Of a stretch of 44,387 bases of DNA, positions 13,987 to 44,387 are shown in pieces (positions within the stretch are counted from its first letter, which is position 1; the number at the start of each line of letters is the position of its first letter). Origin of the DNA: Akkermansiaceae bacterium. GTDB lineage: Bacteria > Verrucomicrobiota > Verrucomicrobiia > Verrucomicrobiales > Akkermansiaceae. The notes beneath the pieces were generated by a model, which was not told the DNA's origin, searched no databases, and worked only from the letters and a program-made list of their open reading frames with translations. Where the stretch lies: assembly GCA_029866215.1 (NCBI GenBank), contig JARWZU010000076.1:1-44387 (forward strand). The letters are read 5' to 3'. The position numbers were made by a program, and so were the translations under genes.

Positions 13987-15522
13987 TTATTTCGGGCGAG
14001 TGAGTTCCTCGAAAGTCGATCCTTGGGATCCTCCAGGCATCGGCTGGTCGAGTGGTGCGATGACCGCGTCTGAGAATAGATCTTTAAAGTTGTCCTTGGG
14101 CGCGCGAACGGAGCCTCCGAGGGTCACGGTCACCCAGCAATACCCTCCGCGGGCTTGCCCAAACGTCGCCTTAAGCCGCAAGCTTTTTGATTCATCAATC
14201 AAGACTTCAGGGATGCCGATCTGCAAGTCACCAGAAAGTGTTTGATCCTCGGCGATGGAGATGGTGCCGGTGAGTGCCATGCGGCCTTTGCTTTCGAGGT
14301 CGAGCTCACGAAGCGTTACCGAGTTATTTTCACGGAGAAGAACCCCTTGGGCCTTTGCATTGAATTTGGGCTGCTTGAACCAAGTGCCTTTTAGCACAGT
14401 TGATAGGTTTGAGAGGAAGGGTAGGCCTTGAAGGGTGATGGCAGAATCGGCAGAACTTTGAAATGCAACTTCAAGGGTAACTTTTGGAGTGGCGGTCGGC
14501 AGGAATGAGAGCGTGTTGGAAATTGCAGAGGGAAGGGAATCGACCCGCCCGTTGACGAAGGTGGTCAATGAGGGGAATCCAAGGGCGCTGATTTCTAAGG
14601 AACGGAGTTCGACCGCGAGGGTCGACAAATGCTCTGGTTCGTAGGGTGACACAGCTCCAGAAAGGTCGAATGAGCCAGATTTGTCCGCACTTTGGGAGAG
14701 GCGCATTCCAATGATTTGGGCGTTGTCGCCCTGAAGCTCGATGAGGGCGCGTTCCAAGTGAAGCTTCGGGTAGCCGGGGATTGCGAGCTCGCCTTGGTTC
14801 ATGCGCAGCTGGGTGGGAATGCTCGAGCTGCTGGGGTAGAGCGAACACTCGGATTTTGAGAGCCGGAGCATCGGGTTTTGGATGGGACCGATGGTAAGAT
14901 CCAGTTTGGAAATCCGATAGCATTTGAACTGAATGGGGATTTCTGTAGCCGACGATTGGGTGTTTCGGGTGGGCTGGCCAAGGGTGGGGATCTGCAGTGC
15001 AAGGATTCCGGATGGGGAGGTGAGTTCGTCGCCCACCATCGTATCTCCGAAGAAGCTGGATGGAAATACCTCAGCACTTACCCCGTACATTGTGAGGTTT
15101 TTGAGCATATTGCCATCAGGCCAGTCCAGTGAAACTTGCCCTGCATTGGCCGTTTTTGGATTCATGCGGAATTGTCGCAAGTCCACCGAGGCTCCGGTCG
15201 ATGTTGAGATTTTTGTAATGAGGTCCTTGCGGAATGAAGTTCCGTTGACGTAGACCATTGCGATTCCGCCGCCAAGAATCAGCACCAAGATGATCGCCAT
15301 GATGGCTGAAAGTTGGATGATGCGGTTCCGCCGAGTTTTAATGCGTTGCTCTTTCTCAGGTTGTTTCGTCCGGCGTTTGCGTTTGCGGACGCGCAGCGCC
15401 TCGCTACCGTCAATGCGGGTGATCAATTTCCCGTCGTCCGCGCCAGCAGAGGAATGCCGCTTGAGACGATCCATCATCTCATCAAATGAGTAGCTTTCAG
15501 GTTCGCGTTCGGGAGATGGCAT
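13987..15522 (-). CDS. AsmA-like membrane-anchored protein, linked to pilus secretin
   Basis: A 511-residue protein with a charged cytoplasmic N-terminus (rich in Lys/Arg, residues 41-66), one transmembrane helix (about 68-92: IIQLSAIMAIILVLILGGG and on), and a long periplasmic region. The periplasmic part is dominated by short beta-strand repeats with ALELRSLEIS- and LPFLSNLSTVLKGT-type sequence. This is the layout of AsmA/DUF3971-like proteins, but no family motif is certain. It lies 39 bases downstream of the large secretin gene on the same strand, so co-transcription is likely and a role near the type IV pilus or envelope is inferred. The start at 15522 is supported by ATG and spacing. 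Confidence 0.55.
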   Translation of the reverse strand: MPSPEREPESYSFDEMMDRLKRHSSAGADDGKLITRIDGSEALRVRKRKRRTKQPEKEQRIKTRRNRIIQLSAIMAIILVLILGGGIAMVYVNGTSFRKDLITKISTSTGASVDLRQFRMNPKTANAGQVSLDWPDGNMLKNLTMYGVSAEVFPSSFFGDTMVGDELTSPSGILALQIPTLGQPTRNTQSSATEIPIQFKCYRISKLDLTIGPIQNPMLRLSKSECSLYPSSSSIPTQLRMNQGELAIPGYPKLHLERALIELQGDNAQIIGMRLSQSADKSGSFDLSGAVSPYEPEHLSTLAVELRSLEISALGFPSLTTFVNGRVDSLPSAISNTLSFLPTATPKVTLEVAFQSSADSAITLQGLPFLSNLSTVLKGTWFKQPKFNAKAQGVLLRENNSVTLRELDLESKGRMALTGTISIAEDQTLSGDLQIGIPEVLIDESKSLRLKATFGQARGGYCWVTVTLGGSVRAPKDNFKDLFSDAVIAPLDQPMPGGSQGSTFEELTRPK

Positions 15523-35781: not shown

Positions 35782-36125
35782 ATGCCGACCTTTTTGGACT
35801 GCCACCTGCCGCCTTGGAAAAGATCCAGAGTGTGCTGGCCGCGCACCCTGATGTGGAGCAGGCCATCCTTTACGGCTCGCGGGCGAAGGGAAATTACAAG
35901 CTGGGTTCGGATATCGATCTGACGCTGGTAGGAAGCGGATTGGTTTATCGTGATTTGCTCAACATCATGGATGAGCTGGACGATTTGCTCCTGCCCTACA
36001 CGATTGATCTTTCGATCCTCGAAATGATCGATCACGCGGGCTTGCGTGAACACATCGAGCGGGTGGGTCAGGAATTTTACCGCCGGCAGGAGCTGGACAT
36101 GCCCCAAGCGGCCAAGTCGCCATAA
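35778..36125 (+). CDS. mntA: MntA-like nucleotidyltransferase antitoxin
   Basis: A 115-residue minimal nucleotidyltransferase (HI0073/MNT family). The catalytic motif GSX10DXD is seen as GSRAKGNYKLGSDIDL, with G33, S34 and D45/D47; the third acidic residue lies in the TIDLSIL strand. It is expected to AMPylate and silence the HepT partner. The gene overlaps hepT by ATGA at 35778-35781, so the two are translated together. The ending (ELDMPQAAKSP) is not conserved. Confidence 0.85.
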   Translation: MNADLFGLPPAALEKIQSVLAAHPDVEQAILYGSRAKGNYKLGSDIDLTLVGSGLVYRDLLNIMDELDDLLLPYTIDLSILEMIDHAGLREHIERVGQEFYRRQELDMPQAAKSP

Positions 36126-36533
36126 TCCTTTCATCCGCAGTTAGAGGGATGACGAGGAGCGCAAGTACTCATCCTGTCGGCGTTTGAAAACGAAAACCAA
36201 TGCACCACGGGTCCACCCATTGAGTGCAAGAGAGCTGAATTTCAAATTCCTGCCTGCAGGCGGGCGTTTCCACCACCATTCAATTTCCCACACAAAGTGA
36301 GGTGAGTCCCAAGCGGGCTGTTTTCAGGAAAATGGGGTCAGGGCCAGAACGGTTCGGCATGCTGGGTACTGCGGATTGGCGGGATCAATTGTGACGAAAT
36401 CGTTATTCAGTTTCCCACACAACTTGAGGCGTAAATCATTTAGCGTCGCAAACAACACCCCCCTATTTTCAGCTCCCCCTCTCGCCCTCCACACGGACCA
36501 TCACTGATCACTACCCCCCCGGAAACCTCGACC
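36126..36533. other. 408-base intergenic region with a direct repeat pair
   Basis: No gene was found. Two direct copies of ATTCAATTTCCCACACAA-type sequence followed by two variable bases and TGAGG occur at 36278-36302 and 36406-36430, 128 bases apart, differing at about three positions. The sequence between includes ATGGGGTCAGGGCCAG, which resembles the GGGGTCAGG heads sometimes found near RAYT/REP sequences. The end of the region, just before the amidase, is C-rich. Confidence 0.5.
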
Positions 36534-37364
36534 ATGGCATTCGACAACGTTGGCAAAGTTTGGACCCCAGCCTCCCTCGCCGAGGACATCGCAGGTCGTG
36601 CCGTGCCCGACTGGCTGGACAGCATCACGATCCATCACACGGCCGCCCCAGCCCTCTCGCAGCGCCCCAGAGGATTCACCATCCAGCACATCCGCAACAT
36701 CCAGAATTTTTACAGCAGCCCGAAATCCGCAGGCGGCAAGGGCTGGTCCACCGGCCCCCATCTCTTCATCGACGAAGACCAGATCTTCGGCATGTGCGAT
36801 TTCCGTTCCAAGGGCATCCATGCCACCAGTTTCAACCATCGCTCGCTCGGAATCGAAGTCCTGGGCGACTATGACATCGAGGACCCCCATACCGGCCGCG
36901 GCAAGGCCTGTTGGCTGAACACCGCAGCCACCGTAGGCGTCCTCCTGAAATGGGCCAGCCTCAAGAAAAACACCTCCACCATCCTCTTTCACCGGGACGA
37001 TCCCAAGACGAGGAAATCCTGCCCTGGTAAACGGATCGACAAGAAATGGTTCCTCGATCTCATCCCGGCGGACATCGACCGGTCGTTGGACACCGTGCCT
37101 TTTGAGAAACCGGATGTCGGCATCCCGTGGGACGCCTGGCATTTCGCCGGCGAACAATGGTGCGTGCCCCTCTACGCCTTCATGACCGCCAAGGGCGTGC
37201 CCGCCGCCGAAGTCCTGGCCAACCTGAAGAGCAAAGGCGGCATCATCTACTACGGCGAGGAACTCATCCACGGAGGCTTCTACGTCCCCAAAGGCAAGAC
37301 CCCCAAGCCCGACGAAACCACCTGGGTCCCTGTCCGCAACCTCATCGAGATCCTCCACGCCTGA
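36534..37364 (+). CDS. N-acetylmuramoyl-L-alanine amidase (Amidase_2)
   Basis: A 276-residue peptidoglycan amidase that cuts between MurNAc and the stem peptide. The Amidase_2/PGRP fold shows the Zn ligands at IHHTAAP (first His), LFHRDDPKT (second His) and KSCPGKRID (Cys ligand), plus TGPHLFIDEDQIFGMCDFRS and HRSLGIEVLGDY. The C-terminal ~90 residues (from about 190: WHFAGEQWCVPLYAFMTAKG and on) are not a recognised binding domain. There is no signal peptide, as in phage-type endolysins, so release by holin, lysis or another exporter would be required; alternatively it is a toxin-like effector. Codons are unusually C-ending compared with neighbours. The start is the ATG at 36534, and a heptamer array begins right after the stop. 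Confidence 0.85.
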   Translation: MAFDNVGKVWTPASLAEDIAGRAVPDWLDSITIHHTAAPALSQRPRGFTIQHIRNIQNFYSSPKSAGGKGWSTGPHLFIDEDQIFGMCDFRSKGIHATSFNHRSLGIEVLGDYDIEDPHTGRGKACWLNTAATVGVLLKWASLKKNTSTILFHRDDPKTRKSCPGKRIDKKWFLDLIPADIDRSLDTVPFEKPDVGIPWDAWHFAGEQWCVPLYAFMTAKGVPAAEVLANLKSKGGIIYYGEELIHGGFYVPKGKTPKPDETTWVPVRNLIEILHA

Positions 37365-37365
37365 G

Positions 37366-37484
37366 GCCTCACGCCTCACGCCTCACGCCTCACGCCTCAC
37401 GCCTCACGCCTCACGCCTCACGCCTCACGCCTCACGCCTCACGCCTCACGCCTCACGCCTCACGCCTCACGCCTCACGCCTCAA
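37366..37484. repeat. Heptamer tandem array GCCTCAC, ~17 units
   Basis: Sixteen perfect copies of GCCTCAC, then a seventeenth ending in A, run without interruption from the base after the amidase stop. Because seven is not a multiple of three, translation would cycle through RLTPHAS in every frame; it is not coding. Confidence 0.95.
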
Positions 37485-37603
37485 TTCTCGCTCTAAAACC
37501 ACCATGACCACTCCTCCCCGGGAGCGCCTAGTCCCAGCTAGGCGCGCTAAGGTGCCCCCAAAGAAGTCGTGCGCTATCAAGCTCCATTTTGAGATTCACC
37601 CCG

Positions 37604-37684
37604 GCAATTCACCCCGGCACAACCGAAGGCGGCGACGGAAAGTGCAGCGGCGACGGATCCTCAATCCAACCCACTTCGCGCCCG
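37604..37684 (+). repeat. Dispersed repeat, copy A (left of MazF module)
   Basis: About 80 bases related to 38319-38399 in the same orientation at roughly 85% identity. The best conserved core is GGCGGCGACGGAAAGTGCAG (copy A) or GGCGGCGGCGGAAAGCGCAG (copy B) followed by CGGCGACGGATC. Together with copy B it brackets the DUF104/MazF pair. Confidence 0.7.
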
Positions 37685-37719
37685 CTCTCCCGTCGATACT
37701 TTAGGCATCTAGATTGGAA

Positions 37720-38037
37720 TCACAGCTCCAGCCACTCCCGTAGCAAGGTATCCAGCGCTGCCCGGTCCTGCGCGGTGATTTGTCCGACGACTTTGCGCAC
37801 CAAGCGCGCCTCCACGGTGGAGATTTGCCCCTTGATTCCGCTTGGGACATTCAACCCGGCCTCCGCCCACTGGCTGAGATGAAAATCGGCATTTAGAAGC
37901 TGCGACGTCACCGGCACTACCAAAAGATCGCCCGGCCAACTGCCGTGGCCCACCACGATCGCGGGTCTCACTTTGGAACTGCTCAGATCCGTGAATGGGA
38001 TCGGCAGCAGAACCACATCATCGCGTGAGCAGGACAT
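37720..38037 (-). CDS. MazF/PemK-family toxin
   Basis: A protein of about 105 residues of the PemK/MazF type, an mRNA-cleaving toxin. Family features are an N-terminal [20 protein letters not shown] (the usual RG/GDV...PF.D..S.K.RP pattern), RPAIVV, DLLVVPVTSQ, IKGQISTVEARLVRKVVGQI and a C-terminal helix. It overlaps the upstream antitoxin gene by 20 bases. The ATG at 38037 gives the family start; a longer frame to 38070 adds [11 protein letters not shown] and would overlap even more of the antitoxin. Confidence 0.85.
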   Translation of the reverse strand: MSCSRDDVVLLPIPFTDLSSSKVRPAIVVGHGSWPGDLLVVPVTSQLLNADFHLSQWAEAGLNVPSGIKGQISTVEARLVRKVVGQITAQDRAALDTLLREWLEL

Positions 38038-38230
38038 TGTAAACGTCGTCGGCTTGGTTGTCCCAGACACCCATCAGCGAGCGTTGTCCCTGATCCAGCC
38101 ACTCACGGCGCTCGGAGTCGTCATTGCCGGTCTCAAGCGAGATTTGGACCACCGAGTTCTCGGCCAACTCCAACGGCTCAAGCGGCCGTAGTCTTCCTCC
38201 CTCGTAGATAGCTCGGATGACAACAGTCAT
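38018..38230 (-). CDS. DUF104/AF2212-like antitoxin
   Basis: A 70-residue protein starting [20 protein letters not shown], which is the DUF104/AF2212 antitoxin pattern (xxIxAVYExGxxRPLEPxxLxEG), followed by a variable C-terminus ([14 protein letters not shown]). It is upstream of, and overlaps, the MazF/PemK toxin gene, as expected for a type II pair where the antitoxin is made first. The start is the ATG at 38230. Confidence 0.8.
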
Positions 38231-38318
38231 GCGCGCAGCATACCCGCCATTGGGTTTCGATCAATTCCTTTCTCCCAACACACCATTCCCCGAAAACAAA
38301 AATCTTCAACTTGTCCCA

Positions 38319-38399
38319 GCAATTGATCCCGGCAAAGCCGAAGGCGGCGGCGGAAAGCGCAGCGGCGACGGATCGTCACTCCACCCTCTTCGCGCCGCC
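38319..38399 (+). repeat. Dispersed repeat, copy B (right of MazF module)
   Basis: Partner of 37604-37684 in the same orientation, 715 bases away. It leads directly into the 21-base tandem array. Confidence 0.7.
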
Positions 38400-38413
38400 C
38401 CCTCTGCGCCGAA

Positions 38414-38791
38414 CAGAACCCGCGCTTGCCACAGCAGAACCCGCACTTGCCACAGCAGAACCCGCGCTTGCCACAGCAGAACCCGCACTTGCCACAGCAG
38501 AACCCGCACTTGCCACAGCAGAACCCGCACTTGCCACAGCAGAACCCGCACTTGCCACAGCAAAACCCGCACTTGCCACAGCAGAACCCGCACTTGCCAC
38601 AGCAGAACCCGCACTTGCCACAGCAAAACCCCCACTGCTCGGAGCAGAACTCCCACCGCCGCCAGCGAGACGCTCTCTGCCTCAAGCGAGAAGCTCTCGT
38701 GTCCCAGCGAGAACTCCTCGTGTCTCAGCGAGAATTCCTCGTGTCTCAGCGAGACGCTCTCGCTGGGAGTCGAGAAGCTCTCGTGTCGGAG
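38414..38791. repeat. 18-unit, 21-base tandem array with graded sequence
   Basis: Eighteen 21-base units run in exact register. Units 1-10 (38414-38623) are nearly identical (CAGAACCCGCACTTGCCACAG, with CGCGC in units 1 and 3 and CAAAA in unit 8). Units 11-12 are transitional. Units 13-18 (38666-38791) follow a different consensus, CGAGAANCTCTCGTGTCNCAG, and several of these contain a short hairpin (CGAGA-NNN-TCTCG). Because the period is a multiple of three, most frames on both strands are open (RTRTCHS, NPHLPQQ, LWQVRVL and others); none has a convincing start. Confidence 0.95.
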
Positions 38792-38852
38792 CGAGAGATT
38801 GATGTTCAACGACTTAGCTAAATTCGGTCCCTTCCAGCCTTTTTCAAGCGAT

Positions 38853-39021
38853 CCGCCACTTTCAGTCCCCCGAACTCACTCACATTCGGAGCATTCAGGT
38901 AAAAAGACCTTTTGACTGCCACCTGCTCTTTTACCTGGAAAGCGATACCCTTCGTATCGAACGCGTCATGCACGGCGCACAGGATCTTCCTAACCGCTTG
39001 CTGGAAGATCCTGAGGGATAG
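38853..39021 (+). pseudogene. 3' fragment of a parE-type toxin gene
   Basis: These bases are a near-exact copy of the last 169 bases of the intact parE at 39604-39933 (offset 912). They encode HFQSPELTHIRSIQVKRPFD to the stop at 39019-39021. The 5' two-thirds of the gene is absent, replaced by non-homologous sequence after the 21-base array. One codon differs (GAQDL against GARDL in the intact copy). Confidence 0.9.
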
Positions 39022-39169
39022 GCAGAAAAGTGGCTGTGGCGTCTGTAGAAAAGAAGGGCGGTTGAGCCCACCGCCCCTAACACACTCGCCCCGGTAATGC
39101 CCGCCCAGCGCATCGTCCTCCGCGAGGAGGGCGGTGATGCTGCGGGTGCGGTGGGCGAAGTGTTCGGCT
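38853..39169 (+). repeat. Duplicated 0.3-kb segment, copy 1
   Basis: About 317 bases repeated at 39765-40080, covering the end of parE plus ~150 bases beyond it. Only scattered substitutions and a one-base indel separate the copies. The minus strand of the part beyond parE reads like a real protein fragment (AEHFAHRTRSITALLAEDDA then LGGHYR). Confidence 0.92.
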
Positions 39170-39209
39170 TCGCCGCTGGTGAGGTGGCGGTCATTCGGAT
39201 CGCTCGAAA

Positions 39210-39374
39210 ATGGACTGTTACAGCGCCAAGCTCCGCAAACTCGGCCTGCGCGAGGAAACCATCGGTTACGGGCCGTCGAAGGAAAAGTGGGAGGAGTGGA
39301 ATCGCGATCGGTCGTGAAAGCATCGCAATCCCGATCTGGACAAAATCTGGGAGCGAACTAGGTTCCTTCCATGA
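39210..39374 (+). pseudogene. Broken gene coupled to parD
   Basis: The frame from ATG 39210 encodes MDCYSAKLRKLGLREETIGY then GPSKEKWEEWNRDRS, stops at TGA 39315-39317, and continues in the same frame with KHRNPDLDKIWERTRFLP to TGA 39372-39374. That final TGA overlaps the parD ATG as ATGA. Composition is that of a real gene with a nonsense mutation (likely Trp to stop). The family is not recognised, and the 5' end is uncertain. Confidence 0.5.
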
Positions 39375-39607
39375 CAATTATCCTTCCGCCCGCGCTGAAT
39401 CAGCTTGTGGATCGTCTTGTCCACACGGGTCGTTACGCCGACGAATGCGATGTGGTCCGCGAGGCCTTGCGCGTTCTTGAACGGCAGGAGTTCGACGAAT
39501 CTCCCGCACTGGAAGCGGCCATCCTCGAAGGCATTCATTCTCCGCACCAGCGTTATGATGCCTCTGTCATGGATCGCATCCGCCAGAACGCCGGCTCCAT
39601 GGCATGA
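39371..39607 (+). CDS. parD: ParD-like antitoxin
   Basis: A 78-residue ribbon-helix-helix antitoxin: MTIILPPALNQLVDRLVHTG, then RYADECDVVREALRVLERQE, the ParD pattern, with an acidic C-terminal tail that binds the toxin (YDASVMDRIRQNAGSMA at the end). It overlaps parE by four bases (ATGA at 39604-39607) and its own start overlaps the stop of the broken upstream frame. It probably represses its own promoter as in other ParD systems. Confidence 0.85.
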   Translation: MTIILPPALNQLVDRLVHTGRYADECDVVREALRVLERQEFDESPALEAAILEGIHSPHQRYDASVMDRIRQNAGSMA

Positions 39608-39933
39608 GCCTGGAAGTATCCATTGCCCTGCGGGCGGAGCAGGACATGACCCTGCAGTACCGTTGGTATCTCGAAAATGCCGACCTCGACGTGGCCGAAC
39701 GCTATCTTTTGGCCGTGCATGAAACGATTCAACGCATTGCCGAGTGGCCGGGCCTGGGGTGCCGCCGCCACTTCCAGTCCCCCGAACTCACTCACATTCG
39801 GAGCATTCAGGTAAAAAGACCTTTTGACTGCCACCTGCTCTTTTACCTGGAAAGCGATACCCTTCGTATCGAACGCGTCATGCACGGCGCACGGGATCTT
39901 CCTAACCGCTTGCTGGAAGATCCTGAGGGATAG
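39604..39933 (+). CDS. parE: ParE/RelE-superfamily toxin
   Basis: A 109-residue RelE/ParE fold protein: SLEVSIALRAEQDMTLQYRW, the DLDVAERYLLAVHETIQRIA helix, WPGLGCRR, and IRSIQVKRPFDCHLLFYLES followed by IERVMHGARDLPNRL. ParE toxins block DNA gyrase, whereas RelE toxins cut mRNA; the ParD partner favours the former. The 3' half of this gene also occurs as a remnant at 38853. The gene appears complete. Confidence 0.88.
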   Translation: MSLEVSIALRAEQDMTLQYRWYLENADLDVAERYLLAVHETIQRIAEWPGLGCRRHFQSPELTHIRSIQVKRPFDCHLLFYLESDTLRIERVMHGARDLPNRLLEDPEG

Positions 39934-40080
39934 GCAGAAGAGTGGCTGTGGCGTCTGTGGAAAAAAAGGGCGGTTGAGCCCACCACCCCTCACATACTCA
40001 CTCGGTAATGCCCGCCCAGCGCATCGTCCTCCGCGAGGAGAGCGCTGATGCTGCGGGTGCGGTGGGCGAAGTGTTCGGCT
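39765..40080 (+). repeat. Duplicated 0.3-kb segment, copy 2
   Basis: Partner of 38853-39169. It starts inside parE and ends just before a short frame (LTVIDLIKSGDIPPYSEYPS then IYRM...) that runs to TAA at about 40171, another likely gene fragment. Confidence 0.92.
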
Positions 40081-40167
40081 CACCGTCATCGACCTGATCA
40101 AATCCGGCGACATCCCACCGTATTCCGAATACCCCTCAATATACCGAATGTGCTATTATTTCACACT

Positions 40168-43100
40168 CTAAACGGCCCTCGACATTTCAAAGAGTTCAGC
40201 AGGCGCATCGAATTCCAAGCGCCAGACCATCGATATCGGGCGATTGCCATCGTATGAAATCAATTCAGCCGCAGGCCCAAGAAAGATAAATGGAGATGTC
40301 TCTTTATCCTCACGCTTCTCAAGTCGGGCGAAGAACAGAATCTTGTATCCTCGGGTTGAAAAATTGATGTAATTCTGGCCCGTCTTACTGTTTTGGGTTG
40401 TTCCAGCCTGACTCTCCCAGTGCAAGACGTCGCGACTGATTAAATAATCCTTGTAGCGTGTTGTTGGCGCGAAATCGCGATCCTCTTTACGGAATGTAAC
40501 GAGGTGAATGTAGATCCTTTGATCCTTCACCGGAATAACGCCAACTCCGGCAGCTCCAGATCTTTCAAGGGTTGCTAAGCCAAAAGCAGCTTTGATCTCC
40601 GCCGTCCCATAAGCAGCGTGCAGCCTCAATGGCCCCGCGATCTTCTTCGTGGGATAACGATGCAGGCTTTTCCGCCATTGTATCACCTCAATCATGTCTT
40701 CCACACTCTTCTTGTTCCGTAGCCATTTTTCAAATGACGCGCGATAACTATCAACGCCAACTACCTCGCCCTTTTGCCCCCAAATCAGATAGTGCAGGGC
40801 CGATGCCTGCTCCGAGGTGAATCCGTAGAATGAAGGTTCTTCAGCAACTCGTGATGCAGACAAAGTCGACATTCTATCCAGCATCTCCGGATCAGTCCGT
40901 AAACAAATTCGTTTCAAGCTCGATCGGGCAGCTTTTAGATCTGGGTCAGGAACTGCTGACGTTCCCGCTGCTTGCGCCTTCCATTCCGACCATGTTCGAT
41001 TGTTCAATACCTCAATCGGAGAAAGCCCGGTCGATTCGATAAAATTCCCAAAGTTGAGCGGCAATTTTGTCTCCGCCTCGAAAGTCCGAATCACTTCAGG
41101 GATGAAGGCATTCAAATTCCCCAAGCTATCCGCGATGTTTTTCAGGATAAACTCGCGGGCTACCCGCTCCAACTGGATGCTGCAGCCCGGTGGCAAATTG
41201 GGGAAATCACGCTCGATCTCACGATCAATCCGTCGACGGGTTGAGCGTAGAAGCGCCCCGAATTTCTGATCAAGCCGATACTTGCGATGGGACTGACCAA
41301 CAAAATCGAGCACCGTCAGGCAGTCCTTCTCCGGTGCATGCCGTAGCCCGCGCCCGAGCTGCTGTAAGAAAACAGTGAGGCTCTCGGTCGGTCGTAGGAA
41401 CATTACCAGATTGATCTCAGGAATATCGATGCCTTCACTGAAGACATCGACGACGAAAAGAAATGTAATGCTCCCTTTGCGGAAGTCCGCCACACGCTGA
41501 TCCCGTGTTTGTCTATCGGTTTCACCCAATACCACCTCGGCCTTAAGTCCCTTTTCCCGGAACTTCCTGGCCATGTAGTTCGCGTGGTCCACTCCCGCAC
41601 AAAACCCCACGGCTTTGGTAGAGCTAATATCCGGCTGATAGCGAGCGAGACTTCCTAAAATCACATCGAGCCTTTGAAGCGCCCGCAAATCATCTCCCGT
41701 GTAAACTTGTGTCAGGGCATTTGCGTCGTATTTTCCATTGCTCCAAAATGCCTCTCCTGAGATATCGACCGGATCGGTCACACCAAAGTAGTGAAAAGGG
41801 CAAAGTAACTTTTCCTCGAGTGCTTCGGGCAAACGAATCTCTGCGGCATAGACATCATCGAAATCCGGCAAGATCGAACTGCCATCCATCCGTTCGGGCG
41901 TCGCCGTTAGCCCTAAGAGGACTTGCGGACGGAGATTCTCAAAAATGGCTCGATAACTTGATGCCCGCCCATGGTGAGCTTCATCGACGATCACGAAATC
42001 AAAATGCTCAGAGCCAAGCGTGCCCCATGGTTGACGAGTCCTCAAACTCTGAACCGAAGCGAAAACAGATTCCCATCGACTCGGCACAGCACCGTCTACC
42101 AAGAGTTCACCAAAGTTCGGATCACGCAATACGGTTCGGAAGCAGTCACGCGCCTGTTGGAGAATTTCTTTTCGGTGAACGACAAACAACAGTTTGGCGT
42201 CGCCTCCTTTCACTCGCTTAAATCTAGCAAAATCGAATGCCGCAATCACGGTTTTTCCTGTTCCTGTGGCCGCCACTACTAGATTGCGTGCAGATCCCGC
42301 TTCGCGAGCAGCTTCCAAGGCCTCAAGAATCCGCTGTTGGTAGGGGTGGGGCTTTATCTCAGCGAAGAAACGCGGCCCGGCGGTATCATCGCTACCTCGC
42401 CCGTATTCAAGAGCCTCCCGGAATCGCAGTGTTTGTGTTTCATTGTAGATCTCAAATTCGTCTTTCGCCCAATAGGTTTCAAATTCAGCGGCAAAACGCT
42501 CAAGCACATGCGGCATATCCTGTGCGGTCACCTTGACCGTCCATTCGACTCCGCTTGTCATCGCCGGGGCCGACATGTTTGCCGACCCGATATAAGCAGT
42601 GGAAAACCCGCTCTTCCGGACAAAATGGTAAGCTTTCGCGTGCAGACGAGTTCGTGCCGTATCATAGGAGACTTGGACCATGAAACCGGGTTGCCGTGCT
42701 AACCACTCGACGGCCTCTGCATCCGAGGCGCCCATGTATGAAGTCGTAATGATCCTAACCGGAACTTTGCGCCGCACCAGATCCTCGAATGCAGGAATCA
42801 GCAACCGAAGCCCAGACCACTTGATAAAAGAAACCAATATGTCGACACGATCCGCCGACATCATTTCAGCACGAATTTCATGTTCGAGTTGAGGATCGTC
42901 GCCCGCCCCCGTGAGCAAACTGCTCACTGACATCGGGGTGCTTGGAACTACCAAAGATTCAGTGTTGAGGTTACTCCTCATTTCTCGGAGTAGGGATTTC
43001 GGTCTCTCCAGCAAATGCTTTCGTTGCGTGTATCTCAACCCATCTTGTGCTGACAAAAGGTCAATCATACGATTAACCAAATTACGCCGATCCTCACTCT

Positions 43101-43284
43101 TTGTGATTCTCAACGCCTGCCGAACCACCTGACCAACGAATTGACTGTAAGCGTGCGGGGAAGCCTCATCGTCAATAACTACGAGGGTTGGAATTAAATC
43201 TGGATTTGAATCGATAAGTGCCTGTAGTTCTTCATCAAGCAGTTTTTCATAGAGCCCAGTAGGCATTCTAATTTTTTCGGGCAT
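40168..43284 (-). CDS. SauUSI-like type IV restriction protein (PLD-helicase-DUF3427)
   Basis: A 1038-residue protein with the order of SauUSI-type, modification-dependent restriction enzymes. An N-terminal ~100-residue helical part precedes a phospholipase D-type nuclease (VDILVSFIKWSGLRLL; HAK at 215-217 in RTRLHAKAYHF; GSANMS at 233-238). The SF2 helicase follows: Walker A ATGTGKT (339-345), DEAH (434-437), LGLTATPERMDG, FSEGIDIPEINLVMFLRP and QQLGRGLRH (641-649). The C-terminal ~350 residues match DUF3427, thought to read modified DNA. Such enzymes cut DNA carrying methylated cytosine and limit phage and foreign DNA. An HNH remnant lies just upstream on the same strand. The start is the ATG at 43284. 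Target specificity is not known. Confidence 0.8.
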   Translation of the reverse strand: MPEKIRMPTGLYEKLLDEELQALIDSNPDLIPTLVVIDDEASPHAYSQFVGQVVRQALRITKSEDRRNLVNRMIDLLSAQDGLRYTQRKHLLERPKSLLREMRSNLNTESLVVPSTPMSVSSLLTGAGDDPQLEHEIRAEMMSADRVDILVSFIKWSGLRLLIPAFEDLVRRKVPVRIITTSYMGASDAEAVEWLARQPGFMVQVSYDTARTRLHAKAYHFVRKSGFSTAYIGSANMSAPAMTSGVEWTVKVTAQDMPHVLERFAAEFETYWAKDEFEIYNETQTLRFREALEYGRGSDDTAGPRFFAEIKPHPYQQRILEALEAAREAGSARNLVVAATGTGKTVIAAFDFARFKRVKGGDAKLLFVVHRKEILQQARDCFRTVLRDPNFGELLVDGAVPSRWESVFASVQSLRTRQPWGTLGSEHFDFVIVDEAHHGRASSYRAIFENLRPQVLLGLTATPERMDGSSILPDFDDVYAAEIRLPEALEEKLLCPFHYFGVTDPVDISGEAFWSNGKYDANALTQVYTGDDLRALQRLDVILGSLARYQPDISSTKAVGFCAGVDHANYMARKFREKGLKAEVVLGETDRQTRDQRVADFRKGSITFLFVVDVFSEGIDIPEINLVMFLRPTESLTVFLQQLGRGLRHAPEKDCLTVLDFVGQSHRKYRLDQKFGALLRSTRRRIDREIERDFPNLPPGCSIQLERVAREFILKNIADSLGNLNAFIPEVIRTFEAETKLPLNFGNFIESTGLSPIEVLNNRTWSEWKAQAAGTSAVPDPDLKAARSSLKRICLRTDPEMLDRMSTLSASRVAEEPSFYGFTSEQASALHYLIWGQKGEVVGVDSYRASFEKWLRNKKSVEDMIEVIQWRKSLHRYPTKKIAGPLRLHAAYGTAEIKAAFGLATLERSGAAGVGVIPVKDQRIYIHLVTFRKEDRDFAPTTRYKDYLISRDVLHWESQAGTTQNSKTGQNYINFSTRGYKILFFARLEKREDKETSPFIFLGPAAELISYDGNRPISMVWRLEFDAPAELFEMSRAV

Positions 43285-43327
43285 ACTTTTTAGGTCAAAT
43301 AGCTAAACACACATCATCAGATAACTT

Positions 43328-43640
43328 TTATGCAATCAACTGCTCACACCGCCACTTCAGCCCCTCCGCATCGGGGTTGAAAGCTAAGTCTTGAGGGAGC
43401 AACAAGGATTGCCCAGATAGTTCGAGCAATTCTTTTTCCCCATTTGAACGCCGAGGATCGAGGATCTTTGAAACGTGCCAGTGGTGATCCGGGCAAGGAG
43501 CAATCAAATTCCGGTCCATTGCTCAGTGGTGGTTCTTGCAGAGGGCGAGACCGTTGGTGGGGTGGTTGTTGCGGCTTTCGGAAAAGGGAATCAAATGTGT
43601 GGCTGTATTCAAGTGCGTCATCTGCGATGAGAAGAGTGGA
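43328..43640 (-). pseudogene. HNH endonuclease pseudogene (stop codon inside HNH)
   Basis: Read 5' to 3' on the minus strand, the frame gives HLIPFSESRNNHPTNGLALC, KNHH, a TGA at 43525-43523 where the family has Trp, then AMDRNLIAPCPDHHWHVSKI and the rest to LKWRCEQLIA. This is the C-terminal HNH nuclease domain common beside restriction and defence genes (NGLALCKNHHWAFDxNLIxP pattern). The 5' part of the gene is missing or unrecognisable upstream of about 43640. The stop falls within the catalytic motif, so it is inactive unless read through. Confidence 0.7.
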
Positions 43641-43697
43641 TTGATGAATGACGATTGTTAATTTTGGATTTTTGAATGGGTAGAAGATGGAGAAAAA

Positions 43698-44387
43698 TCA
43701 GGGCGCGCCGAGTTCCTTTTCGATTTCCTCGATGGTGGGTAAGTTTCCTTTGAGATTCTTGGGGAGTTTGCGGGTGATTTGGTATTCGGAGACGCCGATG
43801 GCCTTGGTCATGCCGCGCAGGGCATATTCGGCGACGAGGCCTTTCTTGTCCTGGCAAAGGATGAGACCGATGCTGGGTTGGTCATCGGGATGGCGCTTCT
43901 GATCGTCGACCACGTTGAGGTAGAAATTCATTTTGGACGCGTGTTCCGGTTTGAATGCGCCGCGTTTCAAATCAATGACGACGAAGCAGCGGAGCTTCAG
44001 GTGATAGAAGAGTAGGTCCAGATAGAAATCGTCATCACCGAGTTCGAGGTGGACCTGACGACCAACGAAGGCGAAGCCGGTGCCGAGCTCGACGAGGAAT
44101 TTGCTCAGGTGCTCGATCAGTCCGAGCTCCAAGTCGCGTTCCCGCGCCCGGAGGCCGAGGGTGAGGAAGCCGAAATGGTAGGGATCCTTGACGATCTGTT
44201 GCGCGAGATCGGACTGCGGATCGGGCAGGGTGTGTTTGAAGTTGGTGATGGCCTTGCCGTGGCGCTTGTGGGCTGCGGATTTGATCTGGAGGGTGAGAAT
44301 GCTGCGCGACCAGCCGTTTTCGAGGGTCTTCACCGCATACCAGAGGCGGGTGGCGGGGTCCTTGACCTTCTGGATTAGGATGACGTT
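43698..44387 (-). CDS. DUF1016/PDDEXK nuclease family protein (5' end cut)
   Basis: The last 229 codons of a YhcG/DUF1016 family protein, running off the right edge. The frame is open to 44387, so the start at 44333 is internal. Characteristic PDDEXK-domain sequence: GTGFAFVGRQVHLELGDDDF, YLDLLFYHLKLRCFVVIDLK with the D...xDLK active site, FKPEHASKMNFYLNVVDDQK, PSIGLILCQDKKGLVAEYAL and GVSEYQITRKLPKNL. The N-terminal winged-helix half is outside the window. These proteins are common in defence islands, with an unproven nuclease role. Confidence 0.85.
   Translation of the reverse strand, partial: NVILIQKVKDPATRLWYAVKTLENGWSRSILTLQIKSAAHKRHGKAITNFKHTLPDPQSDLAQQIVKDPYHFGFLTLGLRARERDLELGLIEHLSKFLVELGTGFAFVGRQVHLELGDDDFYLDLLFYHLKLRCFVVIDLKRGAFKPEHASKMNFYLNVVDDQKRHPDDQPSIGLILCQDKKGLVAEYALRGMTKAIGVSEYQITRKLPKNLKGNLPTIEEIEKELGAP

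What the first reader, a model, noticed from the sequence alone, without database searches (positions are those of the whole stretch)
38853..40080. Tandem 0.3-kb duplication that cuts a parE gene and carries extra coding-like DNA
Bases 38853-39169 and 39765-40080 are near-identical; the first copy begins inside the parE coding sequence. Between them sits a broken gene plus intact parD and the 5' part of intact parE. The likeliest history is a tandem duplication of a multi-gene TA unit followed by deletion. The shared part past parE reads as a plausible protein on the minus strand, so the duplicated unit contained more than the TA pair.
Basis: seen in the sequence. Interest (0 to 1): 0.5.

Follow-up and report, generated by a model that had tools for sequence, protein, structure and literature searches.

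The report
Scrambled leftovers in a defence-gene island
An apparently working toxin-antitoxin gene pair in a bacterium related to Akkermansiaceae sits between two near-identical 0.3-kb scraps, most likely left by a small DNA duplication and later deletions in a decaying island of anti-virus genes; it is real and instructive but looks like ordinary genome erosion.

Summary
The repeat is real: 38853-39169 and 39765-40080 align at 95.9% over 317 columns with one 1-bp indel. It holds the last 56 codons of parE plus the 3' end of a convergent gene. The 'broken gene' between the copies is the last ~42 codons of a phosphorothioation-associated methyltransferase, TIGR04096. In relative G004 the intact gene lies directly upstream of parD. 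parD and parE are intact and show purifying selection.

Likeliest history: a ~0.91-kb tandem duplication of [methyltransferase 3' end - parD - parE - ISP 3' end], new junction at 39190/39191, then deletions that trimmed both ends. No relative with the undamaged parE/ISP arrangement was found, so this is inferred. A third parE scrap lies on another contig behind the same left flank. The same scraps, reordered, occur in another species' genome, which makes an assembly artefact unlikely for the flank and points to repeated illegitimate recombination in a defence island. Interest is modest.

The parts
38403..38800 (.). array of degenerate 21-bp repeats (GCAGAACCCGCACTTGCCACA and GAGACGCTCTCG types) left of copy 1; limits approximate
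   Evidence: the repeat finder families D1 and D4; similar array, one unit shorter in the aligned part, at G000:C65; pieces of it in L093
38771..38853 (-). left flank shared with G000:C65 and L093; its right end reads as a remnant of a RhuM-family gene (DRLKKAG)
   Evidence: blastn L093:72-154 at 90.5%, contiguous there with a RhuM fragment; PF13310 77 bits on the C65 reading frame
38853..39021 (+). copy 1, first part: 3' end of parE (codons ~54-109), truncated at its 5' side
39054..39078 (-). terminator-like hairpin downstream of the ISP gene tail (copy 1); weaker equivalent at 39969-39984 in copy 2
   Evidence: 3 terminator-like sites found, 1.5 expected from shuffles, so weak
39085..39190 (-). 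copy 1, second part: C-terminal coding end of a Type ISP restriction-modification gene (HLTSGEAEHFAHRTRSITALLAEDDALGGHYR), frameshifted at its end
   Evidence: DNA 77% to G004:C1:3002768-3002878; in G044 the same segment follows PF18135 matches over the cut-off, in G004 a match below it
39191..39317 (+). 3'-terminal ~42 codons of a TIGR04096 DNA phosphorothioation-associated methyltransferase gene, truncated at its 5' side; 39190/39191 is the proposed duplication junction
39320..39370 (+). upstream region that travels with parDE; TGGACA (39337-39342), 16 nt, TAGGTT (39359-39364), ATG 6 nt later; possible promoter of a leaderless parD message (inferred)
   Evidence: alignment of 9 loci; blastn homology to L074 and L087 starts at 39321 and 39320; the consensus promoter scan found none here
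39371..39607 (+). parD, intact antitoxin gene (78 aa)
   Evidence: PF03693, TIGR02606 52.6 bits, cut-off 46.2; dN/dS 0.08-0.22 in 7 of 7 comparisons
39604..39933 (+). parE, intact toxin gene (109 aa)
   Evidence: PF05016; dN/dS 0.06-0.09 in the 7 of 9 comparisons where dS could be computed
39765..40080 (+). copy 2 of the repeat: parE 3' end plus ISP gene 3' end
39990..40080 (-). Type ISP C-terminal fragment in copy 2, with a stop codon after ALGGHYRVSM, cut off at 40080
40168..43284 (-). intact Type IV methyl-directed restriction enzyme gene (PLD nuclease, SF2 helicase, DUF3427)
   Evidence: PF04851, PF11907, PF13091; PADLOC mREase_IV 653.6 bits over residues 111-1036
43698..44333 (-). match to PADLOC candidate defence protein PDC-S02
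   Evidence: 319.7 bits
37720..38230 (-). neighbouring PemK/MazF-like toxin gene 37720-38070 and AF2212-like gene 38018-38230 (antitoxin role recalled, not from a call)
   Evidence: PF02452 and PF01954

Best explanation
This is a decaying defence island that carries one intact parDE toxin-antitoxin module. Ancestrally the order was methyltransferase (TIGR04096) - parD - parE, converging with the 3' end of a Type ISP restriction-modification gene. A ~0.91-kb tandem duplication joined the ISP tail to the methyltransferase tail (39190/39191) by illegitimate recombination. Later deletions removed the front of the first unit (fusing the tail of parE to a RhuM remnant and 21-bp repeats at 38853) and the rest of the ISP gene at 40080. 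The complete second parDE unit has stayed under purifying selection; copy 1 and the fragments are relics. SHOWN: the repeat, the identity of the named fragments, intact and constrained parDE, methyltransferase-parD adjacency in G004, a parE scrap behind the same flank elsewhere in this genome, and the same scraps in another species' genome. INFERRED: the order of events, that parE once adjoined an intact ISP gene, and that ParE and ParD act as toxin and antitoxin. Functional consequence (inferred): recombination between the two direct repeats would delete the 912-bp unit with both parD and parE, so post-segregational killing by ParE would counter-select its loss.
For: Repeat and spacing. Methyltransferase homology runs from 39191 through its stop and into the parD upstream region as in G004, and G004 has an intact methyltransferase directly before parDE. 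ISP homology runs through copy 1 up to 39191. G000 has no PF18135 match and only this one methyltransferase match, so both genes survive only as scraps. Of 29 methyltransferase matches in 61 genus genomes, 7 are full length, 1 covers 613 of 662 residues near a contig end and 21 are shorter, 17 of those 21 keeping one gene end, as expected of erosion by deletion. parE: 13 matches in 8 of 61 genomes, 6 full length or nearly so, 7 partial. parE dN 0.03-0.14 against dS 0.45-2.29 in 7 comparisons. Defence genes adjoin.
Against: No sequence examined shows the predicted intact parE/ISP convergence (0 of the 38 sequences mapped gave an ISP match at E 1e-4; that threshold would show a long ISP gene but missed even the short ISP tails in the window). 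The 911-912 bp offset is compatible with one unit but is no independent test, since the second unit's right edge is gone. The parE part of the two copies differs at 2 of 169 bases but the rest at 10 substitutions plus an indel in 148 columns, more uneven than one duplication date alone suggests; gene conversion or selection would have to be added. The left flank plus parE 3' end exists also at G000:C65, so copy 1 could be a recombinant with that locus.
Confidence: 0.64

Rival explanations
1. Dispersed copying: copy 1 did not arise in place but came by recombination between this locus and the C65-type locus (21-bp repeats - RhuM - parE 3'), using the shared parE sequence, or by insertion of a fragment.
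For: C65 has the same left flank at 6 mismatches in 193 aligned bases plus one 21-bp length difference and the same parE scrap at 98%; copy 2 and C65 share a C at 39774 where copy 1 and 4 of 5 relatives have T, a single site.
Against: C65 lacks the ISP tail next to its parE scrap, so the ISP tail in copy 1 still needs a duplication of the local parE-ISP junction; breakpoints in parE differ by 8 bp between C43 and C65.
Confidence: 0.27
2. Integron cassette array: parDE and fragments are cassettes moved by an integron integrase; the end of copy 2 at GTTCGGCT would be an attC end.
For: The genome has two TIGR02249 integrases over the cut-off (C86, C84) and attC-like hairpins in C86 (called attC-like by inspection and recall). 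GTTCGGC stands at the end of copy 2 and is over-represented in the window (18 matches, 9.4 expected, 1 of 100 shuffles as many). Copy 1 folds well as single-stranded DNA on the plus strand (z -2.48; minus strand -1.58). Window 43631-43700 matches two places in a G004 integrase region (71-76%), and a stretch near the C65 scraps matches C84 beside its integrase (69.5% over 128 columns).
Against: GTTCGGC here lies within ISP coding sequence, since homology to G004 and G044 runs through it in copy 1. No RYYYAAC/GTTRRRY pairs in the window, though this scan also missed the C86 sites and so is insensitive. No blastn match between window 36001-44387 and the C86 or C84 regions. Copy 2 does not fold unusually (z -0.95 and -0.53).
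Confidence: 0.03
3. Assembly artefact: strain variants or repeats chimerically joined in this draft genome.
For: Genome is a draft of 88 contigs; no reads available.
Against: Copies differ at 12 sites plus an indel and have different flanks; the 21-bp repeat/RhuM flank and parE and methyltransferase scraps recur in L093, the genome of another species. L093 does not show the 0.3-kb duplication itself.
Confidence: 0.05

Closest known systems
ParDE type II toxin-antitoxin module (PF03693/PF05016, TIGR02606)
   Same: Intact overlapping parD-parE, both families matched above Pfam cut-offs, strong purifying selection
   Different: A 3' scrap of parE lies 0.9 kb upstream; the upstream promoter-like sequence would give a leaderless message (inferred)
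Type ISP restriction-modification enzymes (LlaGI/LlaBIII type; PF18135 C-terminal domain; PMC4666363 and PMC4872093 seen only as search listings with abstract starts)
   Same: The shared tail is homologous to the extreme C-terminus of such genes in relatives
   Different: Only ~30 residues remain, twice; no PF18135 match in this genome
TIGR04096 DNA phosphorothioation-associated putative methyltransferase
   Same: 39191-39317 is 73-85% identical to the end of the G004 protein, which scores 573.7 bits, cut-off 150
   Different: The 5' part is gone; it is a relic
Defence islands with passenger toxin-antitoxin genes (concept recalled; no paper read here)
   Same: parDE, a MazF-like gene, Type IV restriction enzyme, PDC-S02, and RM and RhuM relics side by side
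   Different: A fine-grained mosaic of about 50-200 bp gene scraps, partly shared in other order with another species

Membership tests
ParDE toxin-antitoxin module | adjacent antitoxin of ParD family and toxin of ParE family above curated cut-offs | tested here: met
   PF03693 28.9 bits (cut-off 21), PF05016 37.1 bits (cut-off 23); TIGR02606 52.6 (46.2); no NCBIfam match for ParE itself
ParDE toxin-antitoxin module | toxicity of ParE and neutralisation by ParD | not testable with these tools
   needs an expression experiment
ParDE toxin-antitoxin module | maintained by selection | tested here: met
   dN well below dS in 7 of 9 parE comparisons (2 not computable) and 7 of 7 parD comparisons
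Type ISP restriction-modification enzyme | C-terminal specificity domain PF18135 | tested here: not met
   0 matches in G000; the fragment itself has no Pfam match at E 0.1; only homology of the last ~30 residues to ISP genes of G004 and G044, so it is a relic, not a member
TIGR04096 methyltransferase | full-length domain above 150 bits | tested here: not met
   only ~42 C-terminal codons found in G000; the G004 homologue meets it
Integron gene cassette | attC sites bounding the genes | tested here: inconclusive
   none found by a pattern scan that also missed the C86 sites nor by blastn against C86/C84; no covariance model was run
Tandem duplication | two direct copies with a single new junction and spacing equal to the unit length | tested here: inconclusive
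   direct copies and a candidate junction at 39190/39191 are there, but the right edge of the second unit is deleted, so unit length cannot be measured independently, and no two complete units were found

The most novel reading that the evidence does not exclude
The recurring scraps (21-bp repeat array, RhuM, methyltransferase tail, parE tail, in two loci of this genome and reordered in another species) are not passive debris but products of a recurrent shuffling process at a preferred site, in which truncated copies could serve as donors for gene conversion into the intact toxin gene or as a substrate for reversible amplification of the TA unit.
Probability: 0.06. Interest if true: 0.55.

Novelty: new member of a known kind. 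Interest (0 to 1): 0.24.

Why it matters
It is a readable fossil record of how defence islands turn over: most scraps can be assigned to a known defence or toxin-antitoxin gene, the one complete TA pair is the part that selection has kept, and comparison between species shows small blocks being reordered. It offers a natural construct for asking whether TA addiction protects a segment flanked by direct repeats from deletion. It does not change what is known about ParDE, Type ISP or phosphorothioation systems.

Tried and rejected
Integron cassettes: considered because the copy-2 boundary falls at GTTCGGC and the genome has integron-type integrases; set aside because that motif lies in ISP coding sequence. 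My attC pattern was too strict (it missed the C86 sites), so this is not a full test, and two weak blastn links to integrase regions were seen. Structured RNA: none in 36000-44387 at E up to 1. Phage origin of the ISP peptide: no tblastn match in the phage collection at E up to 1. Pfam on the ISP peptide alone: no match at E 0.1; the identification rests on relatives. Element with inverted ends: TTTTCAAGCGATCCG (38841-38855) and its near-complement at 39196-39210 bound copy 1 (14 of 15 bases; reached by 3 of 20000 shuffles and 0 of 5000 random window pairs), but each arm is explained as native sequence of a different gene (RhuM, methyltransferase), so no element is claimed; the test was made after seeing the match. 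Clustering of parE breakpoints at codons 54-70: detection limits and shared descent make it uninformative. Literature: four searches, only listings and starts of abstracts seen, no paper opened; none of the listed titles described this locus, which is no proof of absence.

Full report
OBSERVATION. The two segments are as described: 38853-39169 and 39765-40080, 95.9% identity over 317 columns, 12 substitutions and one 1-bp indel, spacing 912 then 911 bp. The same query found one further place in the 3.03-Mb, 88-contig genome: C65:52418-52583, covering only the parE part (167 bp at 98%).

WHAT THE PIECES ARE. From left to right. (a) A 21-bp repeat array. (b) A short remnant of a RhuM-family gene on the minus strand; in C65 and in L093 the same flank continues into a longer RhuM fragment (PF13310 77 bits on the C65 reading frame; L093:72-287 is 93.5% identical to C65 over 217 columns). 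(c) parE codons ~54-109. (d) On the minus strand, the end of a Type ISP restriction-modification gene. The segment alone matches no Pfam family, but in genus relative G044 it follows PF18135 matches over the cut-off (38.5 and 36.7 bits) and in G004 a match below the cut-off (19.7 bits). The G044 end reads NRPLTADEAQQFTHHVRRITALLAENAALDAHYK, against HLTSGEAEHFAHRTRSITALLAEDDALGGHYR here; DNA homology to G004 spans 39081-39191 at 77%. (e) 39191-39317, the tail of a gene whose intact form in G004 scores 573.7 bits to TIGR04096. (f) parD and parE, complete. (g) The second parE/ISP tail, cut at 40080. (h) A complete Type IV restriction enzyme gene (PADLOC mREase_IV, 653.6 bits) and, near the contig end, a PDC-S02 candidate defence gene. 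A PemK/MazF-like gene with an AF2212-like partner lies to the left. The setting is a defence island.

RELATIVES. In G004, methyltransferase - parD - parE are contiguous, and an extra 3' piece of the methyltransferase lies 0.75 kb upstream. In G011 and G023 parDE is followed by an HNH gene and a homologue of the window's Type IV enzyme, in G023 with a Vsr gene between; the window has no Vsr or HNH match. In L087 parD with a truncated parE (residues 1-71) lies just after a tRNA-Ser gene. Homology to L074 and L087 begins at 39321 and 39320, so the module appears to travel with about 50 bp of upstream DNA. In that stretch TGGACA, 16 nt and a TANNNT hexamer ending 6 nt before ATG are aligned in the closer loci (columns invariant in 9 of 9 include GACA, TA and T). 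I read this as a promoter giving a leaderless parD message; the consensus scan of this region found no promoter, and the G000 hexamer (TAGGTT) is poor, so this is inference.

HISTORY. A tandem duplication leaves one new junction, where the right end of a unit meets its left end. At 39190/39191 the ISP homology stops (39191 against G004; a gapped G044 alignment runs to 39204) and the methyltransferase homology starts (39191 against G004 and G001), with an overlap of one or two bases at most. From there the second unit is complete up to 40080. The offset of 911-912 bp is compatible with one unit but is not an independent test, because the unit's right edge is deleted. Two deletions then explain the outer edges: at 38853 (one shared base between the RhuM and parE parents, by inspection) and at 40080. 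The inference is economical, but no undamaged ancestor was found: none of the 38 sequences mapped gave an ISP match at E 1e-4. That threshold would show a long ISP gene but not short tails (it missed those in the window), and the loci reach at most 6 kb beyond parE.

WHAT COMPLICATES IT. C65 carries the same left flank (6 mismatches in 193 aligned bases and a 21-bp length difference) followed by RhuM and then the parE scrap. L093, from a record titled Akkermansiaceae bacterium MAG16 (the same contig as G062:C19 judged by matching coordinates), has 21-bp repeats - RhuM - methyltransferase tail - unassigned sequence - parE tail, the last continuous with sequence that also follows the parE scrap in C65 (94% over 172 columns). 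The flank was found in 1 of 6 further genomes searched, G062 itself. The RhuM/methyltransferase junction in L093 shares GGAAACC with both parents (by inspection). So scraps were made and moved more than once, and before these species separated or with exchange between them. Copying of copy 1 from a C65-type locus is therefore a serious rival, although it does not by itself supply the ISP tail.

SELECTION. For parE, dN is 0.03-0.14 and dS 0.45-2.29 in the 7 of 9 comparisons where dS was computable; for parD, dN 0.04-0.17 and dS 0.26-2.07 in 7 of 7. At the sites where the three copies differ, judged against five relatives, the C65 scrap has three private changes and copy 1 has one, all four at codon positions 1 or 2, as expected of unconstrained relics. 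The numbers are small.

EROSION IS COMMON IN THE GENUS. In 61 genomes drawn from the genus the methyltransferase gave 29 matches in 22 genomes: 7 full length, 1 of 613 of 662 residues near a contig end, and 21 shorter, of which 17 keep a gene end (10 the 3' end, 7 the 5' end). Some short ones may be cut by contig ends or divergence; I did not check each. parE gave 13 matches in 8 of 61 genomes, 6 of them full length or nearly so; two of the 7 partial ones are pieces of one locus. Type ISP matches: 16 of 61 genomes, 15 over the cut-off, none in G000.

FUNCTION. The likeliest working part is the intact parDE pair, an addiction or stress module inside the island; the repeat itself is most likely inert. 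Its one predicted effect is instability: recombination between the copies would remove parD and parE together, and the stable toxin would then act against the deletion. This is inference from the known logic of type II modules and was not tested.

VERDICT. Observation confirmed; interpretation partly supported and made specific; ordinary in kind, new only as an instance. Interest 0.24.

Noticed in passing
G000:C86:11959-12897 (L107, L112) and C84:2151-3083: Two integron-type integrases over the TIGR02249 cut-off (396 and 331 bits; the 14 control genomes also match, 0 over the cut-off) and, in C86, three repeats near 14130, 17837 and 18356 that look attC-like by inspection; 14 of 24 genomes searched have an integrase over the cut-off.
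   Followed up: partly
38841-38855 and 39196-39210: Near-perfect inverted match (14 of 15 bases) at both edges of copy 1, although each arm looks native to a different gene; rarely reached by shuffles. Unexplained.
   Followed up: partly
38403-38800; G000:C65 and C48:29751-30060; L093:1-154; G062:C240:13795-13952: Degenerate 21-bp repeat arrays or their flank recur at several loci and in another species; readable as a heptad peptide (SLRHESF type) on the minus strand.
   Followed up: partly
43332-43566: Intergenic stretch upstream of the Type IV enzyme occurs twice in L093 (3772-4007, 5397-5584; 89-93%): a dispersed repeat that could seed recombination.
   Followed up: no
43628-43700: Short stretch that recurs in relatives L031, L036 and L092 and in a G004 integrase region (L115).
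   Followed up: no
L035:13939-14024 (tRNA-Tyr), L097:5563-5635 (tRNA-Arg), L087:5514-5602 (tRNA-Ser): Scrap mosaics or parD with a truncated parE lie close to tRNA genes in three loci, as at typical island insertion sites.
   Followed up: no
L042 (G044:C82): Two Type ISP 3' ends lie 1.1 kb apart with a reading frame between them, a second example of duplicated defence-gene tails.
   Followed up: no
37352-37483: Seven-base tandem array (CACGCCT)n after the amidase gene.
   Followed up: no
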